Shown one piece after another: positions 8,734 to 39,697 of a stretch of DNA of 64,000 nt. How positions within the stretch are numbered: the stretch's first letter is position 1; every line of letters starts with the position of its first letter. The notes under the pieces are model-generated. The model saw only the letters and a list, made by a program, of their open reading frames with translations, was not told the origin of the DNA and searched no databases. This stretch comes from Bacteroidota bacterium (GTDB lineage Bacteria; Bacteroidota; Bacteroidia; Flavobacteriales; Flavobacteriaceae): contig JAJRRO010000032.1 of the NCBI GenBank assembly GCA_024279425.1, forward strand, positions 62,001 through 126,000, read 5' to 3'. A program made the position numbers and the translations under genes.

Positions 8734-8765
8734 AAAAGGGCGGTCTTCAAGAAGACCGCCCTTTT
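8734..8765 (-). terminator. intrinsic terminator after the oxidoreductase cluster
   Basis: A 15-bp perfect stem (AAAAGGGCGGTCTTC paired with its complement) with a 2-nt centre is followed on the minus strand by a run of six T. It sits 19 bp beyond the stop codon at 8784 and ends the minus-strand unit that starts near 13.1 kb. Confidence 0.88.
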
Positions 8766-8783: not shown

Positions 8784-10229
8784 TTAAAATTCCCTATATG
8801 GTGATTCCAGATATTGATTGGCTTCTTCTTCTGAGAATTTTGCATTCTCGCTGTCCCAGTGCAAGGTCTTGTTCGGGAAACGACCTGCAATAACCCCTAG
8901 AAGAATGGTTTCCGTTAGTCGGGAAGCATAGGAGAAAGGAGCACTGCACTCACCTCTGCCTAAACAGGCATCTACAAACTGATGATAATGCTTAGGCCCT
9001 TCCGAACCATAATTACGTATGGGTTTGCCCATATTATTGGCTTTCTCCACTTTAGCAATTTCTTTTGAGATATCAACATATTTCCCATTCACAATTTTCT
9101 TGGGCAATTCCATAAAATGAGGGAGTAATAAACGTCCTTTGTCGCCTATGAACATTGCACCTTGTTCGGGCAGTTCGCCTGCCCCTGTTGCTTTGGTTTC
9201 AAGCGACATTTTATCTTTTACTGTTGCTTTATCATCATTCGCACCCTTTCCTTTTTTGGCCCTGGCACCGGGCAATTTCAAATCTTCATGCATTTCAGGG
9301 GCCCCAGCCCCATCATACCATACCCATTTTAAGGTGTCGGCCGTATGTTTTGTGGCAGGAAATTCATAAGTGACCACATTGTTTTCAGGATAACCGAATC
9401 CTGTTGGTTTTCTACATTCGTTTTTGATGGTTCGGGGAACATCCAATTCCAACGCGTTATAGGGAGTGTCGAAAATATGTACGCCCATATCCCCGAGAGT
9501 ACCACATCCGTAATCCATTAATTTTCTCCAATTACCTGGATGGTATACTCCTTCTTTGTAAGGGCGTTCGGCAGAAGTGCCCAACCAAAGGTTCCAATCC
9601 AAAGTTTCTGGTACTGGATCACTTCCTTTTGGGGCCTTGCCATCAAATCCCCAATTCTTGGGAGACCAAGCCCTAACGGTATGTACTTTGCCTATTATCC
9701 CAGACTGTATAAGTAATGTGGCCAATTTGTAATCATAGAAAGAGTGTACTTGAATCCCCATTTGGGTAACCAAGTTCTTTTCGGCAGCCAACTTTTTCAT
9801 GGCCCGAGCCTCAGTCACATGGTGTGTCAAAGGTTTTTGACAATACACAGGTTTGTTCATGTTCATAGCCATCATAGATGCGGGAGCATGTGTATGGTCA
9901 GGTGTTGAGACCACTACGGCGTCAATGTCATCACCCATTACCTGTAGCATTACCCTATAATCAGAAAAGACCTTGGCATTTGGATGCATTTTTTTAGCGG
10001 CTGCAAGTCGTGTACTGTCAACATCGCACAGGGCCGTTACATCAACTAAGGGATGTGAAGAAATAGCTTTTAAGTCTTCGCCACCCATGCCTCCTATACC
10101 AATGTGGGCAGTTCTTAATCGGTTATGTGGTCCAATTTTACTTATTATAGAGGGCGCCAATGCCATTCCTAGTATACCTAAGCTACTTTTTTTTACAAAA
10201 TCCCTACGATCTTTATTATATGTACTCAT
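8784..10229 (-). CDS. Tat-exported Gfo/Idh/MocA-family oxidoreductase
   Basis: A 481-residue NAD(P)-dependent oxidoreductase. The N-terminus has a twin-arginine signal (DRRDFVKKSSLGILGMAL), so it should cross the membrane folded with its nucleotide bound. The Rossmann loop is IGIGGMGGEDL and the family Lys lies in KPVYCQKPLTH, followed by a C-terminal alpha/beta substrate domain. The reaction is likely oxidation or reduction of a sugar hydroxyl, possibly at C3. It is the last gene of a run with two DUF1080 lipoproteins and a GH109-like enzyme and ends at a strong terminator. The sugar is unknown. Confidence 0.88.
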   Translation of the reverse strand: MSTYNKDRRDFVKKSSLGILGMALAPSIISKIGPHNRLRTAHIGIGGMGGEDLKAISSHPLVDVTALCDVDSTRLAAAKKMHPNAKVFSDYRVMLQVMGDDIDAVVVSTPDHTHAPASMMAMNMNKPVYCQKPLTHHVTEARAMKKLAAEKNLVTQMGIQVHSFYDYKLATLLIQSGIIGKVHTVRAWSPKNWGFDGKAPKGSDPVPETLDWNLWLGTSAERPYKEGVYHPGNWRKLMDYGCGTLGDMGVHIFDTPYNALELDVPRTIKNECRKPTGFGYPENNVVTYEFPATKHTADTLKWVWYDGAGAPEMHEDLKLPGARAKKGKGANDDKATVKDKMSLETKATGAGELPEQGAMFIGDKGRLLLPHFMELPKKIVNGKYVDISKEIAKVEKANNMGKPIRNYGSEGPKHYHQFVDACLGRGECSAPFSYASRLTETILLGVIAGRFPNKTLHWDSENAKFSEEEANQYLESPYREF

Positions 10230-10254
10230 ATGTGTGAAATTATTTCTATGATTA

Positions 10255-10932
10255 TTAATTGGTTGACAAATCTTTTATTCTAATATTTTTAAATCTTACA
10301 ACATCCCCATGGCCAAGAAAGCCAATATGCCCTTTGGTTCTTTGCAGTCCGGGATGATTTTTTTTGTCCATTGTACCATTTTTACTGGCTTCAATAAAAT
10401 CTCCATCCACAATTGTTGTACCATTTAAAACAACCTTTATTTTGGAGCCTTGAACAATTGCTTCCTGCTGATTCCATTCCCCAACCGGATTTAGGTATCC
10501 CCTTTTTGCAGGAATTATTCCATAGACCGATCCATGGTATTGATAAGGTTGTAAATCAGCATATTTTTCAGCAGTATTGTCCAGTATCTGTAGCTCTTTA
10601 CCTTTGTAGGCCACATCACCTCCAAGAGGAGCGTGAATACCAAGTCCGTTATTACCTCCGGGAGTTAATTGGAATTCAAATCTAAAAACAAAATCACTAT
10701 ACTCTTTTTCAGTCAATAGATTACCCCCGCTACCTCCACCATTGGGATCAATGGTAATCATTCCGTCTTCAGCTTTGTAAGACTCCTTATTTCCGACCCA
10801 ACCATCGAGGTTTTTTCCATTGAAAAGGGCTACAAAACCATTTTCTCCTGAATTTTTGTGAGTGCCACATGACATAAAAAGAACGGATACTAATACTAAA
10901 GAGAGGAAATAAGTACTGAATTGTCTGTTCAT
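10255..10932 (-). CDS. DUF1080 lipoprotein (3-keto-glycoside hydrolase/lyase-like), copy A
   Basis: A 225-residue lipoprotein with lipobox LFMSCG. The DUF1080 fold is a concanavalin-like beta-jellyroll; the signature FNGKNLDGW opens it and GNNGLGIHAPLGG, ELQILD and GFLGHGD follow. Family members act on 3-keto-disaccharides or glucosides, cleaving them after an oxidoreductase has made the 3-keto sugar. Gene order with a Tat-exported Gfo/Idh/MocA enzyme 25 bp downstream fits this. It follows the second DUF1080 gene by 4 bp, so the two are co-translated neighbours. Substrate specificity cannot be read. Confidence 0.85.
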   Translation of the reverse strand: MNRQFSTYFLSLVLVSVLFMSCGTHKNSGENGFVALFNGKNLDGWVGNKESYKAEDGMITIDPNGGGSGGNLLTEKEYSDFVFRFEFQLTPGGNNGLGIHAPLGGDVAYKGKELQILDNTAEKYADLQPYQYHGSVYGIIPAKRGYLNPVGEWNQQEAIVQGSKIKVVLNGTTIVDGDFIEASKNGTMDKKNHPGLQRTKGHIGFLGHGDVVRFKNIRIKDLSTN

Positions 10933-10936
10933 TTAA

Positions 10937-11728
10937 TTATAACTTTTTGATTTTAATGTTCCTGAACCAAATAGGACTTGAATGGTCTTGAAACCCAATA
11001 TAACCGGTTTTAAACTTCCCATAATCGACACTATTCTTCCATTTATCCGAATTCTTCTTTTCATGCCATTCTTCTGTCCAGGGTACAAAGGACAGAACCA
11101 TCATTCCGTTTAACCAGTGTTCTACCTTTCCTGGTGTGAATACTATTTTGGAAGAATTCCATGAGCCAACAGGGTTCAATATTTTTCCCTTTGGATCTGC
11201 TGGATGCATGGCATAATCTGAAGCGGTTTGCTGTAAAGGCTTAAGCTCATTGGGTTTTTCTGTATAGCCCAAACTTGTATTGTACTCGGTTAGATCATGT
11301 ATCTTAGCGTAATTTTCATCGTCGATCAACTGATATTCTGGAGCAGTTTCCTGCGGAAGTTTATAGCCTTCCTTTACATGATAAAATATACCACTGTTAC
11401 CTCCTTTAGGGAGTTTCCATTCCACAAAAAACTCAAAATTATCGAATTCCTCAGCCCCATAGATGATATCCTTACCACCTTTATAATCCTGCTCTAGGCC
11501 AAGCTCCGTGTCAAACGTTAATGCACCATCTTTGGCCACCCATCCAGGAGGCAAGGTTTCACCATTATAGGCTCTCCAACCTTCGGTACTTGTTCCATCA
11601 AATAGGACTATCCACTCATTCGCCTTGGTTTCAATTTCTGCTGTTTTTTCAGCGTTGACCTCTTTCTTTTTAGTTTTACAAGAAAAGAACGCCAATGCCA
11701 CTATCAAAACGCAAATATTTCTCTTCAT
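10937..11728 (-). CDS. DUF1080 lipoprotein (3-keto-glycoside hydrolase/lyase-like), copy B
   Basis: A 263-residue protein with signal peptide and lipobox ALAFFSCKT. DUF1080 motifs are LFDGTSTEGWRAY near the N-terminus, GGNSGIFYHVKEG in the middle and YIGFQDHSSPIWFRNIKI at the end. It is longer than copy A, with the SGIFYHV and YQLID motifs of the commoner DUF1080 subtype, so the pair may divide substrates. It lies 16 bp after the GH109-like gene. Likely periplasmic or surface-exposed glycoside cleavage. Confidence 0.87.
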   Translation of the reverse strand: MKRNICVLIVALAFFSCKTKKKEVNAEKTAEIETKANEWIVLFDGTSTEGWRAYNGETLPPGWVAKDGALTFDTELGLEQDYKGGKDIIYGAEEFDNFEFFVEWKLPKGGNSGIFYHVKEGYKLPQETAPEYQLIDDENYAKIHDLTEYNTSLGYTEKPNELKPLQQTASDYAMHPADPKGKILNPVGSWNSSKIVFTPGKVEHWLNGMMVLSFVPWTEEWHEKKNSDKWKNSVDYGKFKTGYIGFQDHSSPIWFRNIKIKKL

Positions 11729-11744
11729 TACAAGTCTGTCAATC

Positions 11745-13142
11745 TTAATTTACGATTTTTAACGGAGCGGTGTCTTTCCAATTACCCCTTGTAAAATCGG
11801 GGAAGTTTTGAGGTGCCCCACCACTGGCGACTGAGCGTTCACTCAAAGGACCGACAGCGCTCCAAGAACATCCTTCATAAAGGTTTTGATCTAATGGAAG
11901 GCCTTTTTGAAGGCATTCTATAATACGAAACCTCATCATCCCGTCCATACCGCCATGGCCACTTCCCTGGGTTGATTGGCTTAATCTTTTGTACAGCGGA
12001 TGGTCATATTTTTCATAAAGTGCCTCCAATTGGTCTCCTTGTGCCCAAGAATGGTGATTTTCGGTTACTCCTTCCACACCACCTTCCAAGGCCACTCTTG
12101 TTGGGAAGCCTGCAAGCGTCCCTTTGGTACCTTGAATCAAATTATGTCGGGAATAGGGTCTTGGACTTGTTTCATCCCATTGGACCATAATTGTACGGCC
12201 TAAAGTTGTCTTAATTATCGATGTATTCAAATCTCCACCTTTGTAATCCAGCTTGTTCCATTTGTGATCAGCAGGATAGTTTTTTTCCGCGTATAATTTC
12301 CGTCCTAATGATGGTGTCGAAAATGAAACAATACTGCCAAAGTTATCTTCTGTACGAGCCAAATTCATATACTGGGCCACAGGTCCCAAGCCGTGTGTAG
12401 GATAAAGGTTTCCATTTCTATGGGCATAGTGAGGGGTTCGCCATGAACCCGTGCCACGCTCAACTTCATTCATTTGCCCCCTTAATTCATGAATATATGA
12501 GGCTTCAGCATGTAAGGGTTCTCCAATTAGGCCTTGCCTACACATATTTAGATACATCAGTTCATCCCGACCGTAGTTCACATTTTCCATCATCATGCAA
12601 TGTTTTTGGGTCTTCTCTGAAGTATCAACAATTTCCCACATTTCCTCAAGGGTTAACCCAATAGGTACTTCGACAAAAGCATGGGCTCCCTTTTTCATGG
12701 CCTCTATGGCCATTGGGGCGTGGTTGACCCAGTTGGTCGCTATAAAAACAACATCGGGTTTGACTTCGTCCAACATTACCTTCCATTGGTTCTCACTACC
12801 ATGGTAAAGTTTGATTTTTTTGTGGCGCTTGCCTCCACCAATTTCTTTGGCGGCCGCTCCCCATTTTTCAACATTATCTTGGTAAAGATCACTTATGGCC
12901 ACCACTTCGGTACCGGGTAATTGGGCAATAAATCTCAAATGTCCTGGACCTCTCGAGCCAACACCGATAAATGCGGCACGTACGGTCTCGAGTTTTGGCG
13001 CAGCAAAATCTCCCATGTATTTGGCCGTAAATGGACGTTCGGGCATAAGATTTGCGCCTTGGCCAATCATTGGTGTCATGGTCATTGCTGCTCCTGCAAG
13101 CGATGTTTTTCTGATAAAGTTCCTTCTGTTGATGTTCTTCAT
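11745..13142 (-). CDS. GH109-like NAD-dependent glycosidase, Tat-exported (alpha-N-acetylgalactosaminidase family)
   Basis: A 465-residue Gfo/Idh/MocA-fold protein with a Tat signal (INRRNFIRKTSL). Beyond the Rossmann motif FIGVGSRGPGH it keeps features of GH109: WRTPHYAHRNGNLYPTHGLG, SPRPYSRHNLIQGTKG, GSGHGGMDGMM and SAVGPLSERS. GH109 enzymes hold NAD+ and cleave through transient C3 oxidation and elimination, best known on alpha-GalNAc. It is the first gene of the run that continues into two DUF1080 lipoproteins and a second oxidoreductase. A plain oxidoreductase role is possible, but the His-rich YPTHGLG motif favours glycosidase. Confidence 0.82.
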   Translation of the reverse strand: MKNINRRNFIRKTSLAGAAMTMTPMIGQGANLMPERPFTAKYMGDFAAPKLETVRAAFIGVGSRGPGHLRFIAQLPGTEVVAISDLYQDNVEKWGAAAKEIGGGKRHKKIKLYHGSENQWKVMLDEVKPDVVFIATNWVNHAPMAIEAMKKGAHAFVEVPIGLTLEEMWEIVDTSEKTQKHCMMMENVNYGRDELMYLNMCRQGLIGEPLHAEASYIHELRGQMNEVERGTGSWRTPHYAHRNGNLYPTHGLGPVAQYMNLARTEDNFGSIVSFSTPSLGRKLYAEKNYPADHKWNKLDYKGGDLNTSIIKTTLGRTIMVQWDETSPRPYSRHNLIQGTKGTLAGFPTRVALEGGVEGVTENHHSWAQGDQLEALYEKYDHPLYKRLSQSTQGSGHGGMDGMMRFRIIECLQKGLPLDQNLYEGCSWSAVGPLSERSVASGGAPQNFPDFTRGNWKDTAPLKIVN

Positions 13143-13382
13143 GGGTATGGATTTTAATTTTCTTGAGTAAATGATTGAACGGGCAAGCCATCTTTTTTAA
13201 ATAGAAAGCCACATAAAAAGCCATTGTTTAGGCAGTGTCGGTTTAATTTGAGTAATCGAGATTGATAATCCCCTAATGGTGTCATATAGGTTGGACGGCT
13301 TTAATTTGCCAATTTACAATAAAACTGAGCAACTAGAAAATTCAATTTTGTTAGATTACTATTTAAATTTCCAAATCTTAGG

Positions 13383-13985
13383 TTAATCGTAAATTTGGAT
13401 GACTTGACCGTTGGTTTTTCCTAAAACACTTCGTACATAGGCATTGATTACTTTTTTGGTCGGAATGGGATTATGGCCGGGGAAATAATTCTTGTATTTT
13501 TCATAAGCATCTTCAACCACTCCCAAAGAAACTGCATTAACCCGAATCCCGTTTTCTGTCTCCAATGCTACCGCCCGTACAAAACTATGGATGCCTCCAT
13601 TTACCATGGCGGCACTTGTGGTCTTGACCACGGGGTCATCTGCCAAAATTCCGGTTGACAATGTAATCGATCCATTGGGGTTCAGATAATTTTGTCCAAT
13701 CCGAACAAGATTTACTTGTCCCATGAGTTTACTTTTTATACCAATATAGAAGTCGTCCTCTGTCAATTCTTTGAAATTGGCCCATTTGGCTTCTCCTGCT
13801 ATACATACAATGGCATCGACCTTTCCTGTATTTTTGAACATGGTTTGTATTGAATCACTATTGGCTATATCAACAAGGACGTCACCCGTCGTTCTTCCAG
13901 CGATTAGGATTTCATATTCCTTGGAAAAATGCGAGGCAACCCTTCGACCGATAGTTCCATTGCCTCCGATTATCAATAGTTTCAT
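13383..13985 (-). CDS. short-chain dehydrogenase/reductase lacking the classical Tyr-x-x-x-Lys
   Basis: A 200-residue NAD(P)-binding protein with Rossmann loop GGNGTIGRRV at the N-terminus and CIAGEAKW in the NNAG position. The usual catalytic YxxxK is absent: the segment after ITLSTGILADD reads AAMVNGGIHSFVRA, as in a small SDR subfamily whose members are about 200 residues. It overlaps the M81 gene by 4 bp (ATGA), so expression is coupled. It probably handles a small carbonyl or alcohol made by the neighbouring hydrolases; the exact reaction is unknown. Confidence 0.8.
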   Translation of the reverse strand: MKLLIIGGNGTIGRRVASHFSKEYEILIAGRTTGDVLVDIANSDSIQTMFKNTGKVDAIVCIAGEAKWANFKELTEDDFYIGIKSKLMGQVNLVRIGQNYLNPNGSITLSTGILADDPVVKTTSAAMVNGGIHSFVRAVALETENGIRVNAVSLGVVEDAYEKYKNYFPGHNPIPTKKVINAYVRSVLGKTNGQVIQIYD

Positions 13986-15541
13986 ATATCGTCTGATGAT
14001 TGGATCAATCTAGCTTTTAGATTAGGGGCATCCATGTCCTTATCCAACGGGAACATGGGTCTTTTGATTCTTTTATGTCCCAAACGTTCGAGATCTTGGT
14101 CAACTCCCCCTGGAGTCAAAGCCATGACCCACCCCTTTCTCATGTTATATAATTGCGGTACCAAATACCCAATTTTCACAACTACTATATTCGTTTCTCT
14201 TGGATTTAACCCCAAGTTTGTAAAATCAGATTCCCTATGATAGGGTTTACGTTTTTTGGTAACAATGACGTTGACGCTTCCTATTTTCACAACCACTTCA
14301 GTTTCGGCATGCCTATCTCCATGTTCAATGGCTGTTATTGTCCCTGACAAGGTTATGGGTGGAGAGAAACGATTATCTATGGCCGCTCCGGCTGTGGCGC
14401 TAATTTTACCACCTACACCAATTTCAATTGCTTTTTTTACGAATTCTGGCCCTGGGATAGAGGCATAAATCAGGGATGGGCCACTTTTAGATTTGAATTC
14501 TGGTCTTTTTAATATTTCGGATATTGTCCAGGTGACATCTCCGGCACCCCCCGCAGTAGGGTTATCTCCCATATCACTAATCATAAATGGATGATCCTGG
14601 CTAGTAATGGCCATATCGAGACTTTCTTCCAATGTGGCAACGGGCGCTACGAATTCAAATTCATCCCTTACTTCCCAAAAACTATTGGCAAGGTGTTCCG
14701 CGCTGGCAACAACTTTTTCTTTATCGTCACCTGTGACCATGACCACGGCATGATTACGGGGCTCATCAGCCCAAGCATAACCGATCCATATGGCTGCATC
14801 AATAATTCCTTGGTCTTTGGTAACAGGATCTACCTTGGCATAAAGGCTTTTTCCAGGTTCAATTCTTGTACTGGTTTTTTCTCCTGGTAATAATATGGGA
14901 ACTGGAATCCACGCTTTATACGCCGGTTTTCCCTTACCATTTTCCAATCTTTCCAATAGGTTGTCAACCGCCCTTTTTTTGGACTCCAACGCATCTTCAT
15001 GAGGTGCCATGCGATAGCAGGTTATCAAGTCTGTATTTTGTGCCAGTCGTTCTGAAACATTCCCATGTAAATCCATAGAAGTTGATATAAGCGTGTTCTT
15101 CCCGATTACCTCACGTATTCTGATAATAAAATCACCTTCCGGGTCATCAAGCCCAACTACACTCATTGCGCCATGAATATCAAAGAAGAGGCCATCATAC
15201 GGTACATTTTCCTTTAGCATGTCCAGAGTTTGTGTTACCAATGACTCGTAGGCTTCCCTGGTAACCGTACCTCCTGGGAGGGCACGTCCCCTTAGGGTAG
15301 GTATCCAGTCTGCTCGTTTACGGTTAAGGGAATCTGGAGATAAAAACGGATAAGAAGTGAAAATATCATCCTTTAGGAGAGGGTGAAAAGCTTCTTCATG
15401 GGTAAGGGCAGGGGAGAAGGTACTTGACTCAATCGCCAACCCAGCAATAGCAATTCGTGGTAATTCTATTTCTTTGTTGCCCTCTTCTTTACATGCTATT
15501 AGTATAGATAGTATTAGCAGACCTAGGAAAAAATTCTTCAT
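13982..15541 (-). CDS. M81 (MlrC/microcystinase C-like) metallopeptidase lipoprotein
   Basis: A 519-residue protein with lipobox LSILIACKE, so it is predicted to sit outside the cytoplasm. The MlrC N-domain shows IAGLAIESSTFSP, FFDIHGAM, SMDLHGN and MAPHEDA, which supply the metal-binding Asp and His residues; DMGDNPTAGGAGD begins the second domain. MlrC cleaves linearised microcystin peptides, but most M81 relatives act on unknown amide substrates. The lipobox is unusual since many MlrC homologues lack a signal. It is followed by the SDR and preceded by two amidohydrolase lipoproteins. Confidence 0.87.
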   Translation of the reverse strand: MKNFFLGLLILSILIACKEEGNKEIELPRIAIAGLAIESSTFSPALTHEEAFHPLLKDDIFTSYPFLSPDSLNRKRADWIPTLRGRALPGGTVTREAYESLVTQTLDMLKENVPYDGLFFDIHGAMSVVGLDDPEGDFIIRIREVIGKNTLISTSMDLHGNVSERLAQNTDLITCYRMAPHEDALESKKRAVDNLLERLENGKGKPAYKAWIPVPILLPGEKTSTRIEPGKSLYAKVDPVTKDQGIIDAAIWIGYAWADEPRNHAVVMVTGDDKEKVVASAEHLANSFWEVRDEFEFVAPVATLEESLDMAITSQDHPFMISDMGDNPTAGGAGDVTWTISEILKRPEFKSKSGPSLIYASIPGPEFVKKAIEIGVGGKISATAGAAIDNRFSPPITLSGTITAIEHGDRHAETEVVVKIGSVNVIVTKKRKPYHRESDFTNLGLNPRETNIVVVKIGYLVPQLYNMRKGWVMALTPGGVDQDLERLGHKRIKRPMFPLDKDMDAPNLKARLIQSSDDI

Positions 15542-15636
15542 ATTAAAACAGGTATGGATTTAGTTGCGTTTAAAAATACCTTTCAATTAGTTACCGTTTT
15601 TAAACGCAACAATGTTATTGAATTCCTTGAAATCTA

Positions 15637-16728
15637 CTATTCCAATTTCAATAAGTCCATAATGTTTTGATGATAGACCTTGTTCAAAATTTGTTCCGAT
15701 AACCCTAACCCTTTAGTTTTTTGTTTCCGAAGAATCATTGAATCAGGACTGCTTAGATAGTTCCATAGGTTATTGTAGTTGGTGTTTAGGTTTTCTTCTT
15801 CATTTTTAAGCTCTTCTTCAGTCATCTTGTCCTCCATCTTGGAATTTCCATAGTCAGATCCAAACATTAAGCGGTCTTGGTATTTTTCAAAAAAAGCGGC
15901 CACTTTTTTGGAATCCTGACTGGCCAAATCTCCAAACCTTGCGGCAGTCTCGGCATACATATTTGGATATTTGTCCAAGCGCTCGGCGACCATGTCAACA
16001 TCATGGGACATACTGCCTAGATGCGCACAGAAAATTTTGAGGTCTGGGTTGTTTTCTATCCACCTATCCCTGGCAGCAATAATCGTTTCGTAGGATGGTA
16101 TCTCTGGAAGTTTAAACGCATGGTATTGAGGGCTATTAGTGTAGTAGCCGTAATGCGGATTATTGGGATTGTCGAGTGGTCTCCATGCTTGTACAGGTTC
16201 CCCAATATGGGCCATAACAGGAATCCCCTTTTCTTTAAGAAAATCCCAAATGGGTTGTAAACGAACATCGTCTATTAGGATAAAACTGCCAGAGGCGTCT
16301 TTGGTTACCATTCCAAAGTTTTTCCAAACCTTGACCATTCTTGCCCCTTCTTTAATCTCTTTATCCAATCGTTTAATATTCTCTTGGGCAAAATTCGGTG
16401 AATCGATGCCAGTACCTATTAAAGAGGAGCAAAGAAAAAATAAATCAGGATGCTTTTTGGAGTGAGCCAAATAAGGGTCCCAACTTCTCCTAACGCTTGT
16501 TGAGTCCTCTATAGCTACATCGACAAGGATTGATTGCATATTCCATTTGTCAAATAATCCAGGTAGATATTCACGAGAGTGCCTATAGTGTGCATGTGCG
16601 TCAATTTTTTTTATGGCCCTATGATCCATAGAAATGGGTTCCGCATTATTTGAGGGTTTTTCTTCCGATTTAGATTTGCAGGACATGAAACCTACAATGA
16701 CAATACATAATAAAAAAACATTTTTCAT
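15637..16728 (-). CDS. amidohydrolase-family lipoprotein, copy 1
   Basis: A 363-residue TIM-barrel metal-dependent hydrolase with lipobox VGFMSCKS. Motifs are KIDAHAHY (HxH metal site), MAHIGEP, FCAHLGS and MFGSDYG, the order found in amidohydrolase_2 (PF04909). Such enzymes hydrolyse or decarboxylate small cyclic or aromatic acids and lactones; the substrate is not readable. A closely related copy of exactly the same length lies upstream. It is separated from the M81 gene by 95 bp. Confidence 0.86.
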   Translation of the reverse strand: MKNVFLLCIVIVGFMSCKSKSEEKPSNNAEPISMDHRAIKKIDAHAHYRHSREYLPGLFDKWNMQSILVDVAIEDSTSVRRSWDPYLAHSKKHPDLFFLCSSLIGTGIDSPNFAQENIKRLDKEIKEGARMVKVWKNFGMVTKDASGSFILIDDVRLQPIWDFLKEKGIPVMAHIGEPVQAWRPLDNPNNPHYGYYTNSPQYHAFKLPEIPSYETIIAARDRWIENNPDLKIFCAHLGSMSHDVDMVAERLDKYPNMYAETAARFGDLASQDSKKVAAFFEKYQDRLMFGSDYGNSKMEDKMTEEELKNEEENLNTNYNNLWNYLSSPDSMILRKQKTKGLGLSEQILNKVYHQNIMDLLKLE

Positions 16729-16907
16729 AATTGGTTTTAAGGTTTAACCCATACTAATAATGGGATTGAAAGTTAGTGGTTAGATTTTTAAAGTTACTAA
16801 ACTTTGATTGTTTACAAAAATGGGTAGTGCGCTGGCTTCTCTGACCATGCGCATCTATTTAGTTGGTCGTTTTTGAACTAACCAATACTACTGGGCTTTA
16901 TAATTTC

Positions 16908-17999
16908 TTATTCCAATTTTAAGAAATTAGTAATGTTTTGATGATAGAATTTGTCCAAAATTTGTTTGGATAATCCTAAACCTTTGGTTTTCTGCTTCCG
17001 ATGTACCAAAGAGTCAGTACCACTTAGATAATTCCATAAGGTATTGTATTTCGCGTCAAGACCCAATTCTTCGTCCCTAAGTTCATCATCTGACATTGTA
17101 TCTTCGGCCTTCCAATTTCCATAATCAGAACCAAACATTATCCTGTCCTGGTATTTTTCAAAAAATGCAGCTACTTTTTTGGAATCCTGACTGGCCAAAT
17201 CCCCAAATCTTTCGGCAGTTTCGGTATACATATTTGGAAATTTGTCCAAGCGTTCTGCGATCATATCAACATCATGGGACATACTTCCAAGATGGGCGCA
17301 CAAAATTTTAAGATCTGAATTGTTTTCAATCCATCTGTCCCTTGCAGCGATGATTGTTTCGTAAGTGGGTATCTCAGGTAGGTTGTAGGCATGATACTGC
17401 GGATTATTCGTGTAATATCCGAAATGTGGGTTGTTGGGATTGTCGAGTGGCCTCCATGCTTGTACAGGTTCCCCTACATGCGCAATAACTGGAATGCCTT
17501 TATCTTTCAAAAAATCCCAAATGGGTTGTAAGCGTGCATCATCTATTTGGATAAAATCTCCAGAAGCATCTTTTGTTACCATTCCAAAGTTCTTCCATAC
17601 CTTGACCATTCTGGCTCCTGCATCAATCTCCTTATCCAATCGTTCAATATTCTCTTGGGCAAAATTCGGTGAATCTATACCAGTACCTATTAAAGAGGAG
17701 CAGAGAAAGAACAAATCAGGATGTTTGTTTGCATGTGTCAGGTAATCATCCCAAACCCTCTTAATGCCTGTAGAATCCTCAATTGGCACATCGACTAGAA
17801 CAGACTGCATGTTCCATTTGTCGAACAACTCGGGTAGATATTCACGGGAATGCTTATAGTGCGAATGAGCGTCAATCTTTTTTATGGTTTGAAAATCCAT
17901 GGAAACAGGTTCAGGATTACCCAAAGGTTTCTCTTCTGATTTTGATTTACATGACATAAGGCCAATAGTGACAATGAATAAAAAAAAAATATTTTTCAT
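16908..17999 (-). CDS. amidohydrolase-family lipoprotein, copy 2
   Basis: A 363-residue paralogue of the next downstream gene, roughly four fifths identical by eye, with the same lipobox (IGLMSCKS) and metal motifs KIDAHSHY, IAHVGEP, LCAHLGS and MFGSDYG. Differences cluster in the N-terminal linker and residues about 290-330, while the barrel core is almost unchanged. This suggests either dosage or slight specificity change after a recent duplication. It is the first gene of the minus-strand block and its upstream sequence matches that of copy 1. Confidence 0.86.
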   Translation of the reverse strand: MKNIFFLFIVTIGLMSCKSKSEEKPLGNPEPVSMDFQTIKKIDAHSHYKHSREYLPELFDKWNMQSVLVDVPIEDSTGIKRVWDDYLTHANKHPDLFFLCSSLIGTGIDSPNFAQENIERLDKEIDAGARMVKVWKNFGMVTKDASGDFIQIDDARLQPIWDFLKDKGIPVIAHVGEPVQAWRPLDNPNNPHFGYYTNNPQYHAYNLPEIPTYETIIAARDRWIENNSDLKILCAHLGSMSHDVDMIAERLDKFPNMYTETAERFGDLASQDSKKVAAFFEKYQDRIMFGSDYGNWKAEDTMSDDELRDEELGLDAKYNTLWNYLSGTDSLVHRKQKTKGLGLSKQILDKFYHQNITNFLKLE

Positions 18000-18095
18000 A
18001 TATGGTTTTAGGGTTTAACCCATGCTAATGATGAGATTGACAATTGGTAGTTAGCTTTTAAAGTTACTTAACTTTAACCGGCTACAAAAATGGGT

Positions 18096-18838
18096 AACAA
18101 GATACGTTTGTTTTGTGATAAATTTAATTCAATATCATTAATGTCCGGTTAAAGACTATAGATCGCTTCGCTGCAAGATGTAAGACGAAAGACTTGTCTA
18201 TACCGAATTGAAGATCATTATGTCTCAAATATAAATCTTAGATCCGGACCATTGAGTGCCAATTTTGAAAAAAGCAAGGGGTCAGTTAAAAAAAAACACC
18301 GGATTCCCTATTATAACAAGGCTTGTGTAACTCAATGATTTTTTCCCGGACAACAATAATTCAATATAATAAGATATATTAATTTTCAAACTTTAGCTCC
18401 TTGATGATTTTATAAATGGGTAGTGTAATGATCCACTATTTCATCAGTATGGCATTTGATGAATAATCCCCTCTAAATTACATTGAATTGCAGAATATCT
18501 AACACATCCCTTATCGGAACCGTAAATGCCATCATGCAGCTCAAAACGATGGCCCGGAAATTTACCCTTATTGACTTCAACAAGATCGATATATTCTTTT
18601 TCCCCACGTACTGAACCATTTTTCAACCAATATTTTCCCATCCATGATACACTTGTTTTTGTTGCAAAATTGTTTATCACATTGGACGGCTATGATTCTA
18701 GTAGAGAACAAGAAGACTCCTCTAAAAAAAATCACGATTCCCGTCCGTGTGGAGAATTACAAATAGCAATTATGCCCCTTTGTCAATGGCGCCTATATTA
18801 CAATTTAGCAAATGAAAGATGAAGATAATCCGACTGTT
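18096..18838. other. long low-coding stretch with one doubtful small frame
   Basis: About 740 bp between the amidohydrolase leader and the arsenite transporter. It is AT-rich and holds three imperfect 7-bp repeats (AAGATGT AAGACGA AAGACTT) at 18175-18195 and one small open frame described separately. I see no tRNA, no IS end and no convincing terminator. Confidence 0.6.
18444..18680 (-). CDS. small hypothetical protein, doubtful
   Basis: A 78-codon frame starting with GTG at 18680; an in-frame stop lies four codons upstream. The product has no signal peptide and no family I recognise; it holds WMGKYWLKNGSV and a Gly/His-rich middle. It could be a remnant of a larger secreted protein or chance coding. 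An internal ATG at codon 14 would give 65 residues. Confidence is low because no operon partner or promoter supports it. Confidence 0.25.
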   Translation of the reverse strand: MINNFATKTSVSWMGKYWLKNGSVRGEKEYIDLVEVNKGKFPGHRFELHDGIYGSDKGCVRYSAIQCNLEGIIHQMPY

Positions 18839-18839
18839 T

Positions 18840-19889
18840 TTACGCAATACGTTTTGGATAGTATTTTTTTCGCAGCCAAAAGGCAACCTTAACCAATAAA
18901 ATCAAGGCAGGAACTTCTACCAGTGGACCAATGACCCCGGCAAATGCCTGGCCAGAGTTTAGCCCGAAAACAGCGATGGCAACGGCAATCGCCAATTCAA
19001 AATTGTTGCCAGCGGCCGTAAAGGAAATTGCAGCAGTTTTGTCATATTCCGCGCCCATGGCTTTGCTGAAGAAAAATCCAATGAAGAACATCAGTACAAA
19101 ATAGAGTAATAACGGAATAGCAATAATCAAGACATCTCTAGGAATTTCGACAATCAACTCACCTTTTAACGAGAACATAACGACAATCATAAACAAAAGT
19201 GCAATTAAGGTCATGGGAGAAATCGTAGGAATGAATTTTTCGGTGTACCATTCTTCTCCTTTTAATTTCACCAAAGTTAATCGACTTAAGATTCCCATTA
19301 TAAAGGGAATACCTAAATAAATTGCAACGCTTTCGGCTATTGTACCAATTGAAATATCTACGATAGCACTCTCAAAACCAAAATATGGGGGTAAAATGGT
19401 AATAAAAATCCAGGCATAGAAACTATAGGCAAAAACTTGAAAAATACTGTTCAGAGCAACAAGACCCGCTCCGTATTCGCTGCTTCCCTCAGCGAGGTCA
19501 TTCCAGACCAGGACCATTGCAATACATCGGGCCAAGCCTATTAGAATGAGTCCGACCATATACTCGGGATAATCCCTTAAAAACAAAACGGCCAGAACAA
19601 ACATTAAAATAGGACCTACAATCCAATTTAGGGTCAATGAAATAGACAGGATTCTTGTGTTCTTGAAAACTTTTGGAAGTAAGGCGTAATTTACCTTGGC
19701 CAACGGAGGGTACATCATTAAAATCAAGCCTATGGCTATGGGAATGTTGGTTGTTCCTGTGCTAAAGGAGTTTATGATTTTGGGAATTTCCGGGGCGAAA
19801 TATCCAATACCTACCCCAAGGATCATTGCAATGAAAATCCATAATGTTAAATAATTATCAAGGAACCCGAGTTTTTTGGTAAAAGCCAT
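18840..19889 (-). CDS. arsB: ACR3-family arsenite efflux permease
   Basis: A 349-residue inner-membrane protein with about ten hydrophobic segments. The conserved Cys of ACR3 TM4 is present in [17 protein letters not shown], and the TM9 Glu in [16 protein letters not shown]. It exports arsenite using the proton motive force. Its start overlaps the stop of the arsenate-reductase-like gene by one base (TAATG), so the pair is translationally coupled and forms a detoxification unit. No arsR lies next to it. Confidence 0.93.
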
Positions 19890-27883: not shown

Positions 27884-30100
27884 ATGTCAACCCTTATACC
27901 TTCAAATTTTAGCAGAAGGGCATTTCTTAGAACTTCTTCCATAGCGGGAGGGGGAATGCTCATAGGTTTTAATCTGTTTACGGCCTGTAAGCCAGAAGCA
28001 GAAATGCCTATCGATATTTCACAGTTAAATTATAACGATTTTAACGCCTTTATCAAAATCTCCGATGATGGTATGGTTACGATTTTTGCACCCAATCCAG
28101 AAATAGGTCAGGGTGTCAAGACTTCAATGCCCATGCTCATTGCTGAGGAACTTGATGTTCCTTGGGAGCATGTAAATGTGGTACAAGGCAAATTGGATAC
28201 CGAGAATTATACCCGTCAAATAGCAGGGGGTAGCCAGTCCCTTAGATTTGGTTGGGAACCGCTTCGACAAACAGGCGCTACGGCCCGGCAGATGTTGGTC
28301 AATGCAGCAGCAACACGTTGGGGTGTAGATGTTTCAGAATGTACGACAAGTCAAGGGATAATTACGAATGCCGCTGGCGAGACTTTAGGTTATGGTGACG
28401 TAGTCAAGGAAGCTGCCACATTGGAGGTTCCTGAAAATGTGGGATTGAAAGACCCCAAGGATTTTAAACTCATTGGTACAGATGCACAAAACGTTGATAT
28501 TGATAAAATAATAAGCGGAAAACCTTTGTTCGGATTGGACTACAAGACCGAAGGCATGGTTTACGCTTCCGTTTTACGACCTCCAGCATTTGGAAAAACC
28601 TTGAAATCCTTTGATGCCACAGAGGCCAAGGCGATGCCGGGTGTTATCGATGTAATCCAAATAGGCGAAAAGGCAAATCATCTGTTAACCAATAAAGAAC
28701 CAAATTGGACAGTGCAGTTGGGCAAGAGTGATAAAGTTGTGGTTATTGCCAAAACAACTTGGGAAGCAATGAAGGCCAAAAAAGCCATAAAGGCGATTTG
28801 GACAGATGCTTCGCCAATGGAAAGTACTGAATTTCAAGATGAGAAATTACTTGGCCTATTGGATGGTAATGAATTTAATACCCTGAGGAAAGACGGTAAT
28901 GTGAAGAAAGCCTTTGCGGAAGCGGACGAAGTTTTGGAGCGAACCTATGAGTCTCCTTTTTTACCACACAATTGTATGGAACCCATGAATTTCTATGCCA
29001 ATATTACAGATGAAAAAATCCATTTGGTGGGGCCCATTCAAACACCTGAACCCACAGCTGGGATGGTAGCTGCTATGTTAGATCGTGATGTCGCTGATAT
29101 TGAATTGGAAATGACCCGTATGGGTGGTGGTTTCGGAAGAAGGTTATATTGTGATTTTGTTTTGGAGGTGGCCGAAATTTCAAATGCCATCAGAAAACCT
29201 GTAAAAATGGTTTCCTCTCGTGAAGATGATATGACAACAGGTGTTTATCGTCCTGCAATCAAGTATCGAATAAAGGCAGGCATAAAAGACGGTAAGATTA
29301 CAGGATACCATTTAAAAGAGGCCGCAATCAATGATAATATGTACGGATTAATACCCAATTTCTTCCCAGCAGGTGCTTTGGAAAATTATCAGGTGGATGT
29401 GGCCAATTATAAGAGCAATATTACAACAGGTGCCTGGCGTGCACCCTATACCAATTTCCTTTCATTTGCCGAGCAAAGCTTTTTGGATGAATTGGCAGAA
29501 GTATTGGATATTGACCCTGTGCAAATGCGTTTGGATCTTTTACAAAAAGTAAAAGGTACGGATGATGAGCGCATAGAATATTCTGCAGAACGTATGGAGG
29601 ATGTAATCAATCTGGTGGTTGAAAAGTCAGGATTGCGCAATCCAAAAGAGGGCGTATACCAAGGTTTCTGCGCTTATTACTGTCACAATACCCACATAGC
29701 AGAGGTCGCGGATGTTGTTATGGAAAACAATCAACCTGTAGTCAAAAAAATTACGGTTGCTGTTGATTGTGGAATAGTTGTGAATCCGCTTGGGGCTTTG
29801 AATCAGATTGAAGGTGGTGTCATTGATGGTGTAGGCCACTCCATGTATGGCAATTTAACCTTTGAGGACGGAAAACCCCAGAGCGATAATTATAACTCTT
29901 ATCGGTTAATTCGGATGAAAGAGGCACCAAAGGTAGAGACTCATTTTGTCAAAAACACATTGAGCCCCACTGGGCTGGGTGAGCCCACTTTACCCCCTGC
30001 GGGTGCAGCGGTATCTATTGCAATAAACAAGGCAACGGGGAATCGTTTGTATAAGCAACCTTTCACCGATTATATGAATAAAAAGGAATTGATTGGTTAA
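27884..30100 (+). CDS. molybdenum hydroxylase large subunit (isoquinoline 1-oxidoreductase-like), Tat lipoprotein
   Basis: A 738-residue catalytic subunit. The N-terminus has a Tat motif (SRRAFLR) and then a lipobox-like FTACKP, so it is probably a Tat-exported lipoprotein. Cofactor-binding motifs are NPEIGQGV, GGSQSLRFGW, RMGGGFGRR, GAWRAPYTNF and GLGEPTLPPAG, the last carrying the active-site Glu. Substrates of relatives include N-heterocycles and aldehydes; this one is unknown. No cytochrome c subunit is adjacent, so the electron acceptor is unclear. The molybdopterin genes follow 6 bp later on the same strand. Confidence 0.93.
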   Translation: MSTLIPSNFSRRAFLRTSSIAGGGMLIGFNLFTACKPEAEMPIDISQLNYNDFNAFIKISDDGMVTIFAPNPEIGQGVKTSMPMLIAEELDVPWEHVNVVQGKLDTENYTRQIAGGSQSLRFGWEPLRQTGATARQMLVNAAATRWGVDVSECTTSQGIITNAAGETLGYGDVVKEAATLEVPENVGLKDPKDFKLIGTDAQNVDIDKIISGKPLFGLDYKTEGMVYASVLRPPAFGKTLKSFDATEAKAMPGVIDVIQIGEKANHLLTNKEPNWTVQLGKSDKVVVIAKTTWEAMKAKKAIKAIWTDASPMESTEFQDEKLLGLLDGNEFNTLRKDGNVKKAFAEADEVLERTYESPFLPHNCMEPMNFYANITDEKIHLVGPIQTPEPTAGMVAAMLDRDVADIELEMTRMGGGFGRRLYCDFVLEVAEISNAIRKPVKMVSSREDDMTTGVYRPAIKYRIKAGIKDGKITGYHLKEAAINDNMYGLIPNFFPAGALENYQVDVANYKSNITTGAWRAPYTNFLSFAEQSFLDELAEVLDIDPVQMRLDLLQKVKGTDDERIEYSAERMEDVINLVVEKSGLRNPKEGVYQGFCAYYCHNTHIAEVADVVMENNQPVVKKITVAVDCGIVVNPLGALNQIEGGVIDGVGHSMYGNLTFEDGKPQSDNYNSYRLIRMKEAPKVETHFVKNTLSPTGLGEPTLPPAGAAVSIAINKATGNRLYKQPFTDYMNKKELIG

Positions 30101-36181: not shown

Positions 36182-37375
36182 ATGATAAACTTTGAAGAGG
36201 CATATAGAAAAGTAATGCAACATACGCTTGATTTGGGGGTAGAGGATGTTGGACTATTAAAAAGCACTGGAAGGGCCCTTGCTGAGGATATTATGGCGGA
36301 TAGGGATTTTCCACCATTTGACCGGGCTACAAAAGACGGAATTGCAATTAATTATTCAGCTATAAAGAAAGGGGTAAATAGCTTTGCAATCGAAGCTGTA
36401 CTCAGTGCAGGAATGCCTCAAACTATGCTTGGTGATACGGCTAACTGTATGGAAATCATGACAGGGGCTGTGATACCTGAAAATGCAGATACGGTCATAA
36501 TGTATGAACAGGTGACTATTGAGAATGGTGTTGCAACCCTTTCCAAAAAGCCAACCAAGGGGCAGGACGTACATAAAAAGGGAAGTGATGTAGTGACAAG
36601 TTCCGTTCTGTTAAAAAAAGGGAAGAGGATAGGAGCGGCCGAGATTGGTGTTCTGGCCTCTGTGGGTAAGTCTAAAGTGCAGGTAAAAAGATTGCCGAAG
36701 GTTTGTGTTGTTTCTACTGGGGATGAATTGGTTGATGTTGATCAGGTTCCATTAGCGCATCAAATCAGAAAATCAAATACCTTATCGTTGTTTGCCGCTC
36801 TGCAGAAAAAAGGTATTATGGCAGAACTCCTGCATCTTAATGATGACAGAAAAGTCATTAAGGAATCCCTTTCCAATATTTTAAAGGATTATGATGTATT
36901 GCTTTTGAGTGGAGGAGTTTCAAAGGGTAAGTTTGATTTTATTCCTGAAGTCATGGAAATGCTAGGTGTTCAAAAGGTGTTTCATAGAGTGGCTCAACGT
37001 CCTGGAAAACCTTTTTGGTTTGGTAAACAGGAGGAAATGAATACCGTGGTATTTTCATTTCCAGGAAATCCCGTTTCCACTTTTGCCAATTATCATATTT
37101 ATTTTTTGTCATGGCTGCAAAAGTGTTTAGGCCTTCCACAAGAAGAAAAAGAGGTGTTGTTGGAAGAATCTATCCAGATAAAACCACCTTTGACGCGCTT
37201 CATTCAAGTTAAGACCGAGGTTAAGAAGGGAGCAACTTGGGCAAAAACAATACGGGAAAATGGATCTGGGGATTTGACCAGTTTGGCCTATTCAGACGGA
37301 TTCATTCGTTTACAAGCTCGTGAGGCGGAATATGAAAAAGGAGAGTTAGTGCCTTTTGTAGCTACACGAAACTAA
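36182..37375 (+). CDS. moeA: molybdopterin molybdenumtransferase
   Basis: A 397-residue enzyme that inserts molybdenum into adenylylated molybdopterin. Motifs are RDFPPFDRATKDG (the PxFDxSxxDG site), TGAVIPENADTVIMYE, STGDELV, LLSGGVSKGKFDF and FPGNPVSTFANY. All four domains are present and length is normal. MogA or MoaB, which normally makes its substrate, is not in this window. It is separated from the rest of the cofactor operon by reversed trpB. Confidence 0.95.
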   Translation: MINFEEAYRKVMQHTLDLGVEDVGLLKSTGRALAEDIMADRDFPPFDRATKDGIAINYSAIKKGVNSFAIEAVLSAGMPQTMLGDTANCMEIMTGAVIPENADTVIMYEQVTIENGVATLSKKPTKGQDVHKKGSDVVTSSVLLKKGKRIGAAEIGVLASVGKSKVQVKRLPKVCVVSTGDELVDVDQVPLAHQIRKSNTLSLFAALQKKGIMAELLHLNDDRKVIKESLSNILKDYDVLLLSGGVSKGKFDFIPEVMEMLGVQKVFHRVAQRPGKPFWFGKQEEMNTVVFSFPGNPVSTFANYHIYFLSWLQKCLGLPQEEKEVLLEESIQIKPPLTRFIQVKTEVKKGATWAKTIRENGSGDLTSLAYSDGFIRLQAREAEYEKGELVPFVATRN

Positions 37376-39256: not shown

Positions 39257-39697
39257 TTAGGGATTAGATTTAAATATCTTTTCCATAATAATATAATCAA
39301 TACCTCCTTTTGCAAATGTCTTGGAAGTCGAACGCATTCCGAACCTTTCATAAAAAGAGGTTTTATCCGCCCGTGCATTACACCATAATCTTTTTATTTT
39401 CTTGTTGGTGATTACGGCCATTAAATGGTTTAGTAATAGCGTTCCATATCCGCTGCCTTGCTCAGATATTTCTGTGGCCAATTTTCTGAATTGTGTACCA
39501 TCCTTTGTTATGAACAGTGATACGACGGAAATTAACCTGGAGTCTTTACTAAGTCCAAAATGAATACCTTTTGCATCGTTTTCCAACTCCACATATTTTT
39601 TGGACTTATTTGGCCACATAACCCGATGTCTTAAATCTTGGGTTTCTTGGGCCGAAATTTCTATGATTTTGAGGTTACTGCTATTTGTTGCTTTCAT
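39257..39697 (-). CDS. GNAT-family N-acetyltransferase
   Basis: A 146-residue protein. The acetyl-CoA loop region reads QGSGYGTLLLNHLM, preceded by the beta-strand VVSLFITK and followed by WCNARADKTSFYERFGM. ATG at 39697 lies within the 3' end of the sulfatase (17-bp overlap), so the longer frame upstream is not used. It probably acetylates an amine; the substrate is unknown. Confidence 0.87.
   Translation of the reverse strand: MKATNSSNLKIIEISAQETQDLRHRVMWPNKSKKYVELENDAKGIHFGLSKDSRLISVVSLFITKDGTQFRKLATEISEQGSGYGTLLLNHLMAVITNKKIKRLWCNARADKTSFYERFGMRSTSKTFAKGGIDYIIMEKIFKSNP

What the first reader, a model, noticed from the sequence alone, without database searches (positions are those of the whole stretch)
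8784..13142. Candidate 3-keto glycoside cleavage operon: two Tat oxidoreductases plus two DUF1080 lipoproteins
Four genes in one direction, 3' end at a strong terminator, encode two Gfo/Idh/MocA enzymes with Tat signals and two DUF1080 lipoproteins. Known logic for such sets is C3 oxidation of a sugar followed by cleavage by a DUF1080 protein. Tat export keeps the nucleotide bound. No SusCD pair, ordinary glycoside hydrolase or sugar transporter is near, so the substrate may be a small soluble glycoside. That the genes form a pathway is inference.
Basis: partly seen in the sequence, partly recalled or inferred. Interest (0 to 1): 0.6.

Follow-up and report, generated by a model that had tools for sequence, protein, structure and literature searches.

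The report
GH109 plus 3-keto glycosidase operon
Four neighbouring genes of a marine Maribacter-type bacterium probably form an exported enzyme set that cuts sugars by briefly oxidising them; one of the two supposed oxidoreductases is really a known type of NAD-using glycosidase, and the gene set recurs in related bacteria.

Summary
The four genes are real, tightly spaced and end at a strong terminator. One correction: 11745-13142 is a GH109 NAD-dependent glycosidase (243 of 427 aligned residues identical to AmGH109A; catalytic Tyr, His, His kept), not a second C3-dehydrogenase, so a glycoside hydrolase is inside the set. 8784-10229 (DH2) is a distant glycoside 3-dehydrogenase: its model matches Alistipes AL3 best (Z 45.8; next fold 32.4) but it fails the BT_2158 equivalog cut-off. 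Both DUF1080 lipoproteins keep the hydration histidine of the known eliminase/hydratase. In 81 Bacteroidota loci chosen by DH2, a DUF1080 gene lies within 2.3 kb in 67; two DUF1080 types, about 30% identical, alternate as partner and occur together in 2 of 81, the window included. GH109 lies near DH2 in 13 of 81, and the set is present in 10 of 11 same-genus genomes. GH20, NagB/PIG-L and galactokinase-like neighbours hint at amino sugars, but that is inference; 22 of 85 loci have the DUF1080-DH2 pair alone. Best reading: an envelope oxidoreductive deglycosylation operon, probably for N-acetylhexosamine glycans, joining a one-site machine (GH109) to a split one (DH2 plus DUF1080). New variant of a known kind.

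The parts
11745..13142 (-). GH109 NAD-dependent glycosidase (465 aa), Tat-type leader; catalytic Y216, H250, H396; carries G401 where AmGH109A has F409
   Evidence: PF21252 189.6 bits; 543 bits, E 5e-162 to 6t2b; 243 of 427 identical to AmGH109A; catalytic positions invariant in 11 aligned GH109
10937..11728 (-). DUF1080 lipoprotein, type A (QDH motif, H249); putative 3-keto-glycoside eliminase/hydratase
   Evidence: PF06439 154 bits; 147 bits to 3u1x and 120 bits to 8rr2/8tda; type A accompanies DH2 in 51 of 81 loci
10255..10932 (-). DUF1080 lipoprotein, type B (FLGHGD motif, H208); alternative partner of DH2
   Evidence: PF06439 153 bits; model pLDDT 88.3, Z 24.9 to 9fbe and 24.0 to 8rr2; H208 invariant in 29 aligned DUF1080
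8784..10229 (-). DH2: glycoside 3-dehydrogenase-like protein (481 aa) with an RR leader; K132 and H251 kept
   Evidence: NF058561 306 bits, cut-off 750 not reached; model pLDDT 84.9, Z 45.8 to 8tdf AL3, 396 residues, 32% identity; K132, H251 invariant in 35 rows
8734..8765 (.). intrinsic terminator-like hairpin, 14 pairs, T run on the minus strand
13143..13382 (-). 240-base intergenic gap before GH109, where a promoter of the operon would lie
   Evidence: spacing only; no promoter was shown

Best explanation
The four genes encode an envelope-located (exported and lipoprotein) oxidoreductive deglycosylation set. GH109, with its bound NAD+, removes a terminal N-acetylgalactosamine-type sugar by C3 oxidation, elimination of the aglycone, water addition and reduction in one active site. 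DH2, with its own nucleotide, oxidises C3 of another glycoside; the DUF1080 proteins eliminate the aglycone, add water to the resulting 3-keto-glycal and release a 3-keto-sugar; DH2-NADH can reduce that back, so no soluble NAD pool is needed. The two DUF1080 types are alternative versions of the same step, perhaps for different anomers or leaving groups. The most likely shared target is an N-acetylhexosamine-containing glycan. Shown by computation: families, catalytic residues, fold, operon spacing, conservation. Inferred: activities, nucleotide retention and recycling, export route, substrate.
For: GH109 identity and catalytic residues (residue roles from passages of PMC10755693). DH2 fold closest to AL3 glucoside-3-dehydrogenase, far ahead of the rest. 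DUF1080 relatives include solved 3-keto-glycoside eliminase/hydratases, and the residue changed in the hydration-deficient H275N variant (PMC13273386 passage) is kept in both (the mapping of H275 is mine, from chain numbering). DUF1080 within 2.3 kb of DH2 in 67 of 81 loci. GH109 near DH2 in 13 of 81 loci, needing at least 8 changes on the DH2 tree, so recruited or lost repeatedly. Amino-sugar context: GH20 within 10 kb of DH2 in 7 of 49 genomes against 0.82 expected by uniform placement, P about 2.5e-5, or 2.2e-4 if two close kin count once; GH20 is the commonest GH family among 98 contiguous neighbours (6 by its domain 2; GH2 3, GH92 2; FtsX is as common, 6); a NagB/PIG-L fusion within 2.3 kb of DH2 in 3 of 80 loci. 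The close GH109 relatives sit beside a galactokinase-like GHMP kinase in 15 of 60 further loci.
Against: 22 of 85 loci have DUF1080-DH2 as a bare two-gene unit (some end at contig edges), so the substrate may differ between lineages. Sugar genes cluster in general, so the GH20 P value is too small. Next to GH109 in 8 of the 10 same-genus sets is GH97, not GH20. The nearest fold acts on glucosides. Most G401-type GH109 in the wider draw have no DH2 within reach (24 of 38 even at the most generous count). DH2-linked loci lack the kinase/nucleotidyltransferase pair, of which the window genome has no convincing kinase copy (best 21% identity, E 3e-5). The RR leader of DH2 is not well kept (37 of 81), which weakens the Tat and bound-NAD argument for DH2. 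Nothing here shows activity.
Confidence: 0.5

Rival explanations
1. Mixed-glycan model: GH109 takes off GalNAc while DH2 plus DUF1080 act on ordinary (gluco- or galacto-) glycosides of the same glycan, as BT2158/AL3-type enzymes do; the pair has nothing to do with amino sugars as such.
For: Nearest fold is a glucoside-3-dehydrogenase. BT2157 is called a 3-ketotrehalose hydrolase, and BT2158 with BT2156 or BT2157 converts glucosinolates (passages of PMC9007349 and PMC12385236). Bare DUF1080-DH2 units are common (22 of 85). GH97 and GH2 also occur beside the set.
Against: GH20 or NagB/PIG-L neighbours occur also without GH109 (L093, L094, L097, L163, L154).
Confidence: 0.33
2. Rescue model: GH109 is the working glycosidase, and DUF1080 and DH2 salvage 3-keto or unsaturated intermediates that leak from it, hydrating and reducing them back.
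For: All the partners would handle the same kind of intermediate; DH2 linkage was found only beside G401-type GH109: 6 of 32 against 0 of 28 of the other types in 60 newly fetched loci (P 0.026).
Against: DUF1080-DH2 usually occurs without GH109 (59 of 81 loci show none, 9 more have too little sequence upstream to tell), so it must have its own job.
Confidence: 0.1
3. One reading: two C3-dehydrogenases and two DUF1080 hydrolases for a small soluble glycoside.
For: Both large proteins share the Gfo/Idh/MocA Rossmann domain.
Against: One of them is GH109 over its full length with all three catalytic residues.
Confidence: 0.05

Closest known systems
GH109, AmGH109A of Akkermansia (PDB 6T2B)
   Same: Full-length homology, 57% identity over 427 aligned residues, Tyr/His/His catalytic set, Rossmann plus GH109 C-terminal domain
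   Different: Loop reads GSGHGGMDG instead of MGGHGGMDF (first loop glycine to serine, F409 to G); here it shares an operon with DUF1080 and a 3-dehydrogenase
Alistipes glucoside-3-dehydrogenase AL3 (PDB 8TDF/8TDH) and BT_2158 family NF058561
   Same: Whole-chain fold match, Z 45.8 over 396 residues; a DUF1080 partner next to it, as with BT2157/BT2158
   Different: 32% identity; 306 of the 750 bits that NF058561 demands. The same genome holds a true equivalog elsewhere, 852 bits at C20:134136-135605
3-keto-glycoside eliminase/hydratases of the DUF1080 family (8RR2, 8TDA and 3OSD, the last titled BT2157; AL2: 8V31)
   Same: PF06439 over cut-off, same fold, hydration histidine kept
   Different: Two types at about 30% identity side by side; type B has FLGHGD instead of the QDH motif
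C. crescentus lactose 3-dehydrogenase (LacABC) plus DUF1080 (PMC9007349, passages)
   Same: Periplasmic C3 oxidation followed by a DUF1080 protein; two DUF1080 genes nearby
   Different: The oxidising enzyme is the membrane-bound LacABC; no GH109 is mentioned in the passages I saw

Membership tests
GH109 glycosidase | GH109 C-terminal domain PF21252 over the curated cut-off | tested here: met
   189.6 bits against 27
GH109 glycosidase | Catalytic Tyr226, His259, His404 (AmGH109A numbering) | tested here: met
   Y216, H250, H396 in the window protein, invariant in 11 aligned GH109; roles from PMC10755693 passages
GH109 glycosidase | Literal GGHGG loop | tested here: inconclusive
   SGHGG here; 2ixa, titled alpha-N-acetylgalactosaminidase, has AGHGG, so the first glycine is not strict
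GH109 glycosidase | NAD-dependent hydrolysis of GalNAc glycosides | not testable with these tools
   needs purified protein
BT_2158 glycoside 3-dehydrogenase equivalog (NF058561) | Score over the curated cut-off of 750 bits | tested here: not met
   306.4 bits
AL3-type glycoside 3-dehydrogenase (wider family) | Whole-chain fold of AL3, clearly above other Gfo/Idh/MocA folds | tested here: met
   Z 45.8, rmsd 2.3, 396 aligned; next fold Z 32.4
AL3-type glycoside 3-dehydrogenase (wider family) | Catalytic Lys and His of Gfo/Idh/MocA enzymes (recalled) | tested here: met
   K132, H251 invariant in 35 rows
AL3-type glycoside 3-dehydrogenase (wider family) | C3 oxidation of glycosides with NAD | not testable with these tools
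   needs assay
DUF1080 3-keto-glycoside eliminase/hydratase | PF06439 over cut-off | tested here: met
   153.1 and 154.1 bits against 26.8
DUF1080 3-keto-glycoside eliminase/hydratase | Histidine needed for hydration (H275 of the B. thetaiotaomicron lyase) | tested here: met
   H249 (type A) and H208 (type B); invariant in 29 rows; mapping of H275 inferred from chain numbering
DUF1080 3-keto-glycoside eliminase/hydratase | Elimination and hydration activity | not testable with these tools
   needs assay
SusCD-type polysaccharide utilisation locus | SusC/SusD pair in the locus | tested here: inconclusive
   none among the ORFs scanned at 2043-30100 (19 of the 22 ORFs of 150 aa or more lying there); the rest of the window was scanned only at six ORFs between 36182 and 43351
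Tat-exported enzyme: GH109 | Conserved twin-arginine leader and a TatC in the genome | tested here: met
   RR kept in 11 of 11 aligned rows; TatC 219.8 bits; export itself not tested
Tat-exported enzyme: DH2 | Conserved twin-arginine leader | tested here: inconclusive
   RR in the window protein, but RR in 37, KR in 40 and neither in 4 of 81 loci, window included

The most novel reading that the evidence does not exclude
DH2 plus DUF1080 is a split, multi-protein counterpart of GH109 that cleaves N-acetylhexosaminides through 3-keto-HexNAc intermediates, and the operon unites the one-site and the split form of the same chemistry on one glycan. The G401-type GH109 (F409 to G beside the catalytic loop) may be what permits this partnership.
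Probability: 0.28. Interest if true: 0.6.

Novelty: new variant of a known kind. Interest (0 to 1): 0.42.

Why it matters
Oxidoreductive glycosidases were recognised late, and their substrates in marine bacteria are little known (recalled). This operon puts the two known designs together in one transcription-like unit, gives a named gene set to test, and offers two interchangeable DUF1080 types beside one dehydrogenase as a natural experiment on what the second DUF1080 does. If the amino-sugar reading holds, it would extend the split 3-keto pathway to N-acetylhexosamines.

Tried and rejected
Rejected: (1) both Rossmann proteins as plain 3-dehydrogenases; GH109 full-length match. (2) The upstream SDR, M81/MlrC and amidohydrolase genes as core parts: of the 12 fetched loci with GH109 at 80% identity or more (the window's own L087 set aside), M81 occurs in one (L061), AH1 in two (L051, L061) and SDR in none; some of these loci hold little sequence upstream. 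(3) 'G401-type GH109 is always linked to DH2': in the first sample 21 of 22 motif-G rows were linked, but 18 of those 21 had been fetched through DH2 or come from the same genus. Two further draws of 395 and 299 genomes gave 69 matches over 700 bits; 60 were fetched anew, most with about 6.5 kb on each side, and 9 had been seen before. Of the 60, 6 of 32 G-type and 0 of 28 other-type had DH2 in reach (Fisher P 0.026). With the 9 earlier ones (six linked G-type, three unlinked F-type): 12 or 14 of 38 against 0 of 31 (P 3e-4 or 1e-4). Without two loci already known through DH2 (L230, L231), 4 of 30 against 0 of 28, P 0.11. So the strong form is withdrawn; G401 is at most necessary. (4) Two DUF1080 genes as a recent duplicate: 32% identical, two old types. 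(5) DUF1080 as rare: the genome has 30 PF06439 matches, 29 over cut-off, and 19 matches to NF058561 at E up to 1e-30, so family membership alone is unremarkable. (6) A twin-arginine leader as a conserved mark of DH2: only 37 of 81.

Led nowhere: literature searches for the combination. 'GH109' with 'DUF1080' found 0 papers; 'GH109' with '3-keto' found 4, of which I read passages of one, PMC10628242. Only open-licence papers are searched, so this is no proof of absence. Nasseri 2024 (Nature) and Teze 2020 were not read; I saw them as reference entries and PDB titles, and anything else about them is recalled.

Not tested: promoter, anomer and substrate preference, the structural place of F409.
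Full report
Observation. Window 8784-13142 holds four minus-strand genes: 11745-13142 (465 aa), 10937-11728 (263 aa), 10255-10932 (225 aa), 8784-10229 (481 aa), with gaps of 16, 4 and 25 bases. A 14-pair hairpin at 8734-8765 with a T run on the minus strand closes the set; 240 bases separate it from the SDR gene upstream. The first and last proteins begin with twin-arginine leaders (RRNFIRK, RRDFVKK) and the middle two with lipobox-like cysteines (read; the motif rules are recalled). The genome has a TatC. The twin arginine is kept in 11 of 11 aligned GH109 but only 37 of 81 DH2 (KR in 40, neither in 4), so Tat export is well founded for GH109 and open for DH2. The genome is of the genus Maribacter by its kin: genome G009, listed as same genus, has a first contig of 1,143,067 bases, the length of the Maribacter arenosus contig behind L090.

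What the genes are. The 465-aa protein matches PF21252, the GH109 C-terminal domain, at 189.6 bits, against 52 bits for the Rossmann family. It aligns over residues 30-464 with PDB 6t2b (543 bits, E 5e-162), with 243 of 427 aligned residues identical. The catalytic Tyr226, His259 and His404 of AmGH109A (roles from passages of PMC10755693) correspond to Y216, H250 and H396, which are invariant in 11 aligned GH109. So the statement that no glycoside hydrolase is near is wrong. It is the only PF21252 match in the genome. The 481-aa protein (DH2) scores 306 bits to NF058561, the BT_2158 glycoside 3-dehydrogenase, below its cut-off of 750. Its AlphaFold2 model (pLDDT 84.9, pTM 0.85; 1-30 and 326-345 poor) matches Alistipes glucoside-3-dehydrogenase AL3 at Z 45.8 over 396 residues at 32% identity; the next fold is at Z 32.4. 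The genome has one true BT_2158 equivalog elsewhere, 852 bits. Both small proteins are PF06439. The model of 10255-10932 (pLDDT 88.3) matches DUF1080 structures at Z 20.7-25.8, among them 3-keto-glycoside eliminase/hydratases and 3-keto-2-hydroxy-glucal hydratases; the next fold, CBM66, is at 16.8. H249 and H208 stand where the B. thetaiotaomicron lyase has the histidine whose H275N variant is deficient in hydration (PMC13273386 passage; position mapped by me), and this column is invariant in 29 rows.

Conservation. GH109 was found in 28 of 60 genomes searched, own included. GH109, DUF1080 and DH2 lie together in 10 of the 11 same-genus genomes; in the 11th (G002) the contig ends 90 bases after GH109. 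Three other genera of the family have GH109-DUFa-DH2 (L063, L065, L069; in L069 another gene lies between). With the window that makes 81: DUF1080 type A alone in 43, A with a third type in 6, type B alone in 14, A and B in 2 (window and its closest relative L088), unclassified DUF1080 in 2, none within 2.3 kb in 13, contig end in 1. One of the 13, L147, has its DUF1080 about 3.9 kb away. So DUF1080-DH2 is the core, A and B are alternative partners, and the window's double set is unusual; G008 (L051) and L241, outside the 81, also have both. GH109 is near DH2 in 13 of 81, not seen in 59, and not assessable in 9 with little upstream sequence. On a quick tree of 86 DH2 (22 of 83 inner branches open), GH109 presence needs at least 8 changes and DUF type 5.

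Neighbours and substrate. Beside GH109 or DH2 in other lineages lie GH20 (L069, L089, L093, L094, L097, L147, L148, L163), a NagB/PIG-L fusion (L154, L158, L164), GH2, sulfatases, a sulfatase-modifying enzyme, and in 8 of the 10 same-genus sets GH97. In 49 genomes with 156 GH20 matches, 0.82 GH20 are expected within 10 kb of DH2 by uniform placement; 7 genomes have one (P 2.5e-5, or 2.2e-4 for 6). This is optimistic, because sugar genes cluster. Among 98 contiguous same-strand neighbours the commonest GH was GH20 (domain 2 in 6, catalytic domain in 5), then GH2 (3) and GH92 (2); FtsX-type permeases were as common (6). Against this, 22 of 85 loci have DUF1080-DH2 alone.

A control that cut a claim down. 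In the first sample, all 21 GH109 linked to DH2 with the exact motif carried glycine (G401) where AmGH109A has F409, and 21 of 22 unlinked rows carried F or Y; the one unlinked G row, L061, sits at a contig end. But 18 of the 21 were fetched through DH2 or come from the same genus. Draws of 395 and 299 genomes gave 69 matches over 700 bits; I fetched 60 anew, most with about 6.5 kb on each side, 9 having been held before. Of the 60, 6 of 32 G-type and 0 of 28 other-type GH109 had DH2 in reach (P 0.026). L275 and L277, on the contigs of L158 and L164, have DH2 just outside the stretch (8 of 32); with the 9 earlier loci the counts are 12 or 14 of 38 against 0 of 31 (P 3e-4 or 1e-4); without L230 and L231, already known through DH2, 4 of 30 against 0 of 28 (P 0.11). 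So G401 is at most necessary, not sufficient, for the linkage, and most G401-type GH109 were seen without DH2 nearby. In the same 60 loci a kinase like the L240 copy, a GHMP kinase with a galactokinase signature, lies beside GH109 in 15 (10 of 32 G-type, 5 of 28 others), usually with a nucleotidyltransferase (13 of 60). This fits release and salvage of a galacto-configured sugar, GalNAc being the known GH109 product. The DH2-linked loci lack that pair, and the window genome has no convincing kinase copy (21% identity, E 3e-5).

How it most likely works. GH109 cleaves a terminal GalNAc-type sugar by itself with bound NAD+. DH2 oxidises C3 of a glycoside; a DUF1080 protein eliminates the aglycone and hydrates the product; the 3-keto-sugar is reduced, most simply by DH2's own NADH, as in glucose-fructose oxidoreductase (inference). 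That single-DUF1080 loci are the rule suggests one DUF1080 can do both steps, in line with the eliminase/hydratase titles. The second type may serve other anomers or leaving groups (inference). All four proteins appear to be exported to the envelope (leaders read; not tested).

Known and new. Each component belongs to a known kind, and DUF1080 with a 3-dehydrogenase is known from B. thetaiotaomicron BT2157/BT2158 (passages of PMC9007349 and PMC12385236; a mutant study found no defect on raffinose-type sugars, PMC11501099 passage). GH109 acting as an alpha-GalNAcase in a mucin locus is known (PMC11992087, passages), and a Maribacter GH109 has been noted with presumed GalNAcase activity (PMC8072126, passage). 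My searches found no paper that holds both GH109 and DUF1080 (open-licence papers only). Hence: new variant of a known kind, moderate interest.

Noticed in passing
window 38247-39119 and 39681-41147: A further PF06439 gene (119.7 bits) lies near a sulfatase with an SGSH_C domain; possibly another 3-keto sugar site.
   Followed up: partly
window 13982-19889: M81/MlrC-type gene, two amidohydrolase-2 genes and an SBF-family symporter follow one another upstream of the operon. In most relatives fetched they were not seen at this place.
   Followed up: partly
L089, L093, L156, L159: PQQ dehydrogenase with cytochrome c, DUF7133 with cytochrome c, or PSCyt/DUF1501 proteins (L159 by clustering with L156) lie next to DUF1080-DH2 or GH109; possible electron acceptors for sugar oxidation.
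   Followed up: no
L158, L164, L275, L277, L278: GH109 relatives (62% identical to the window protein) whose catalytic loop reads SDHGGSDG instead of SGHGGMDG; L275 and L277 are the same contigs as L158 and L164.
   Followed up: partly
L238, L240, L242, L246, L270 and ten more of the 60 loci: GH109 beside a galactokinase-like GHMP kinase (15 of 60 loci), usually with a nucleotidyltransferase (13 of 60); looks like a GalNAc salvage cassette.
   Followed up: partly
DH2 leaders in L087-L167: The twin arginine of DH2 varies between RR (37), KR (40) and neither (4 of 81), so close orthologues may use different export routes.
   Followed up: partly
window 27884-30100 and 36182-37375: A molybdopterin cofactor-binding protein and a MoeA gene lie in the same window.
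   Followed up: no
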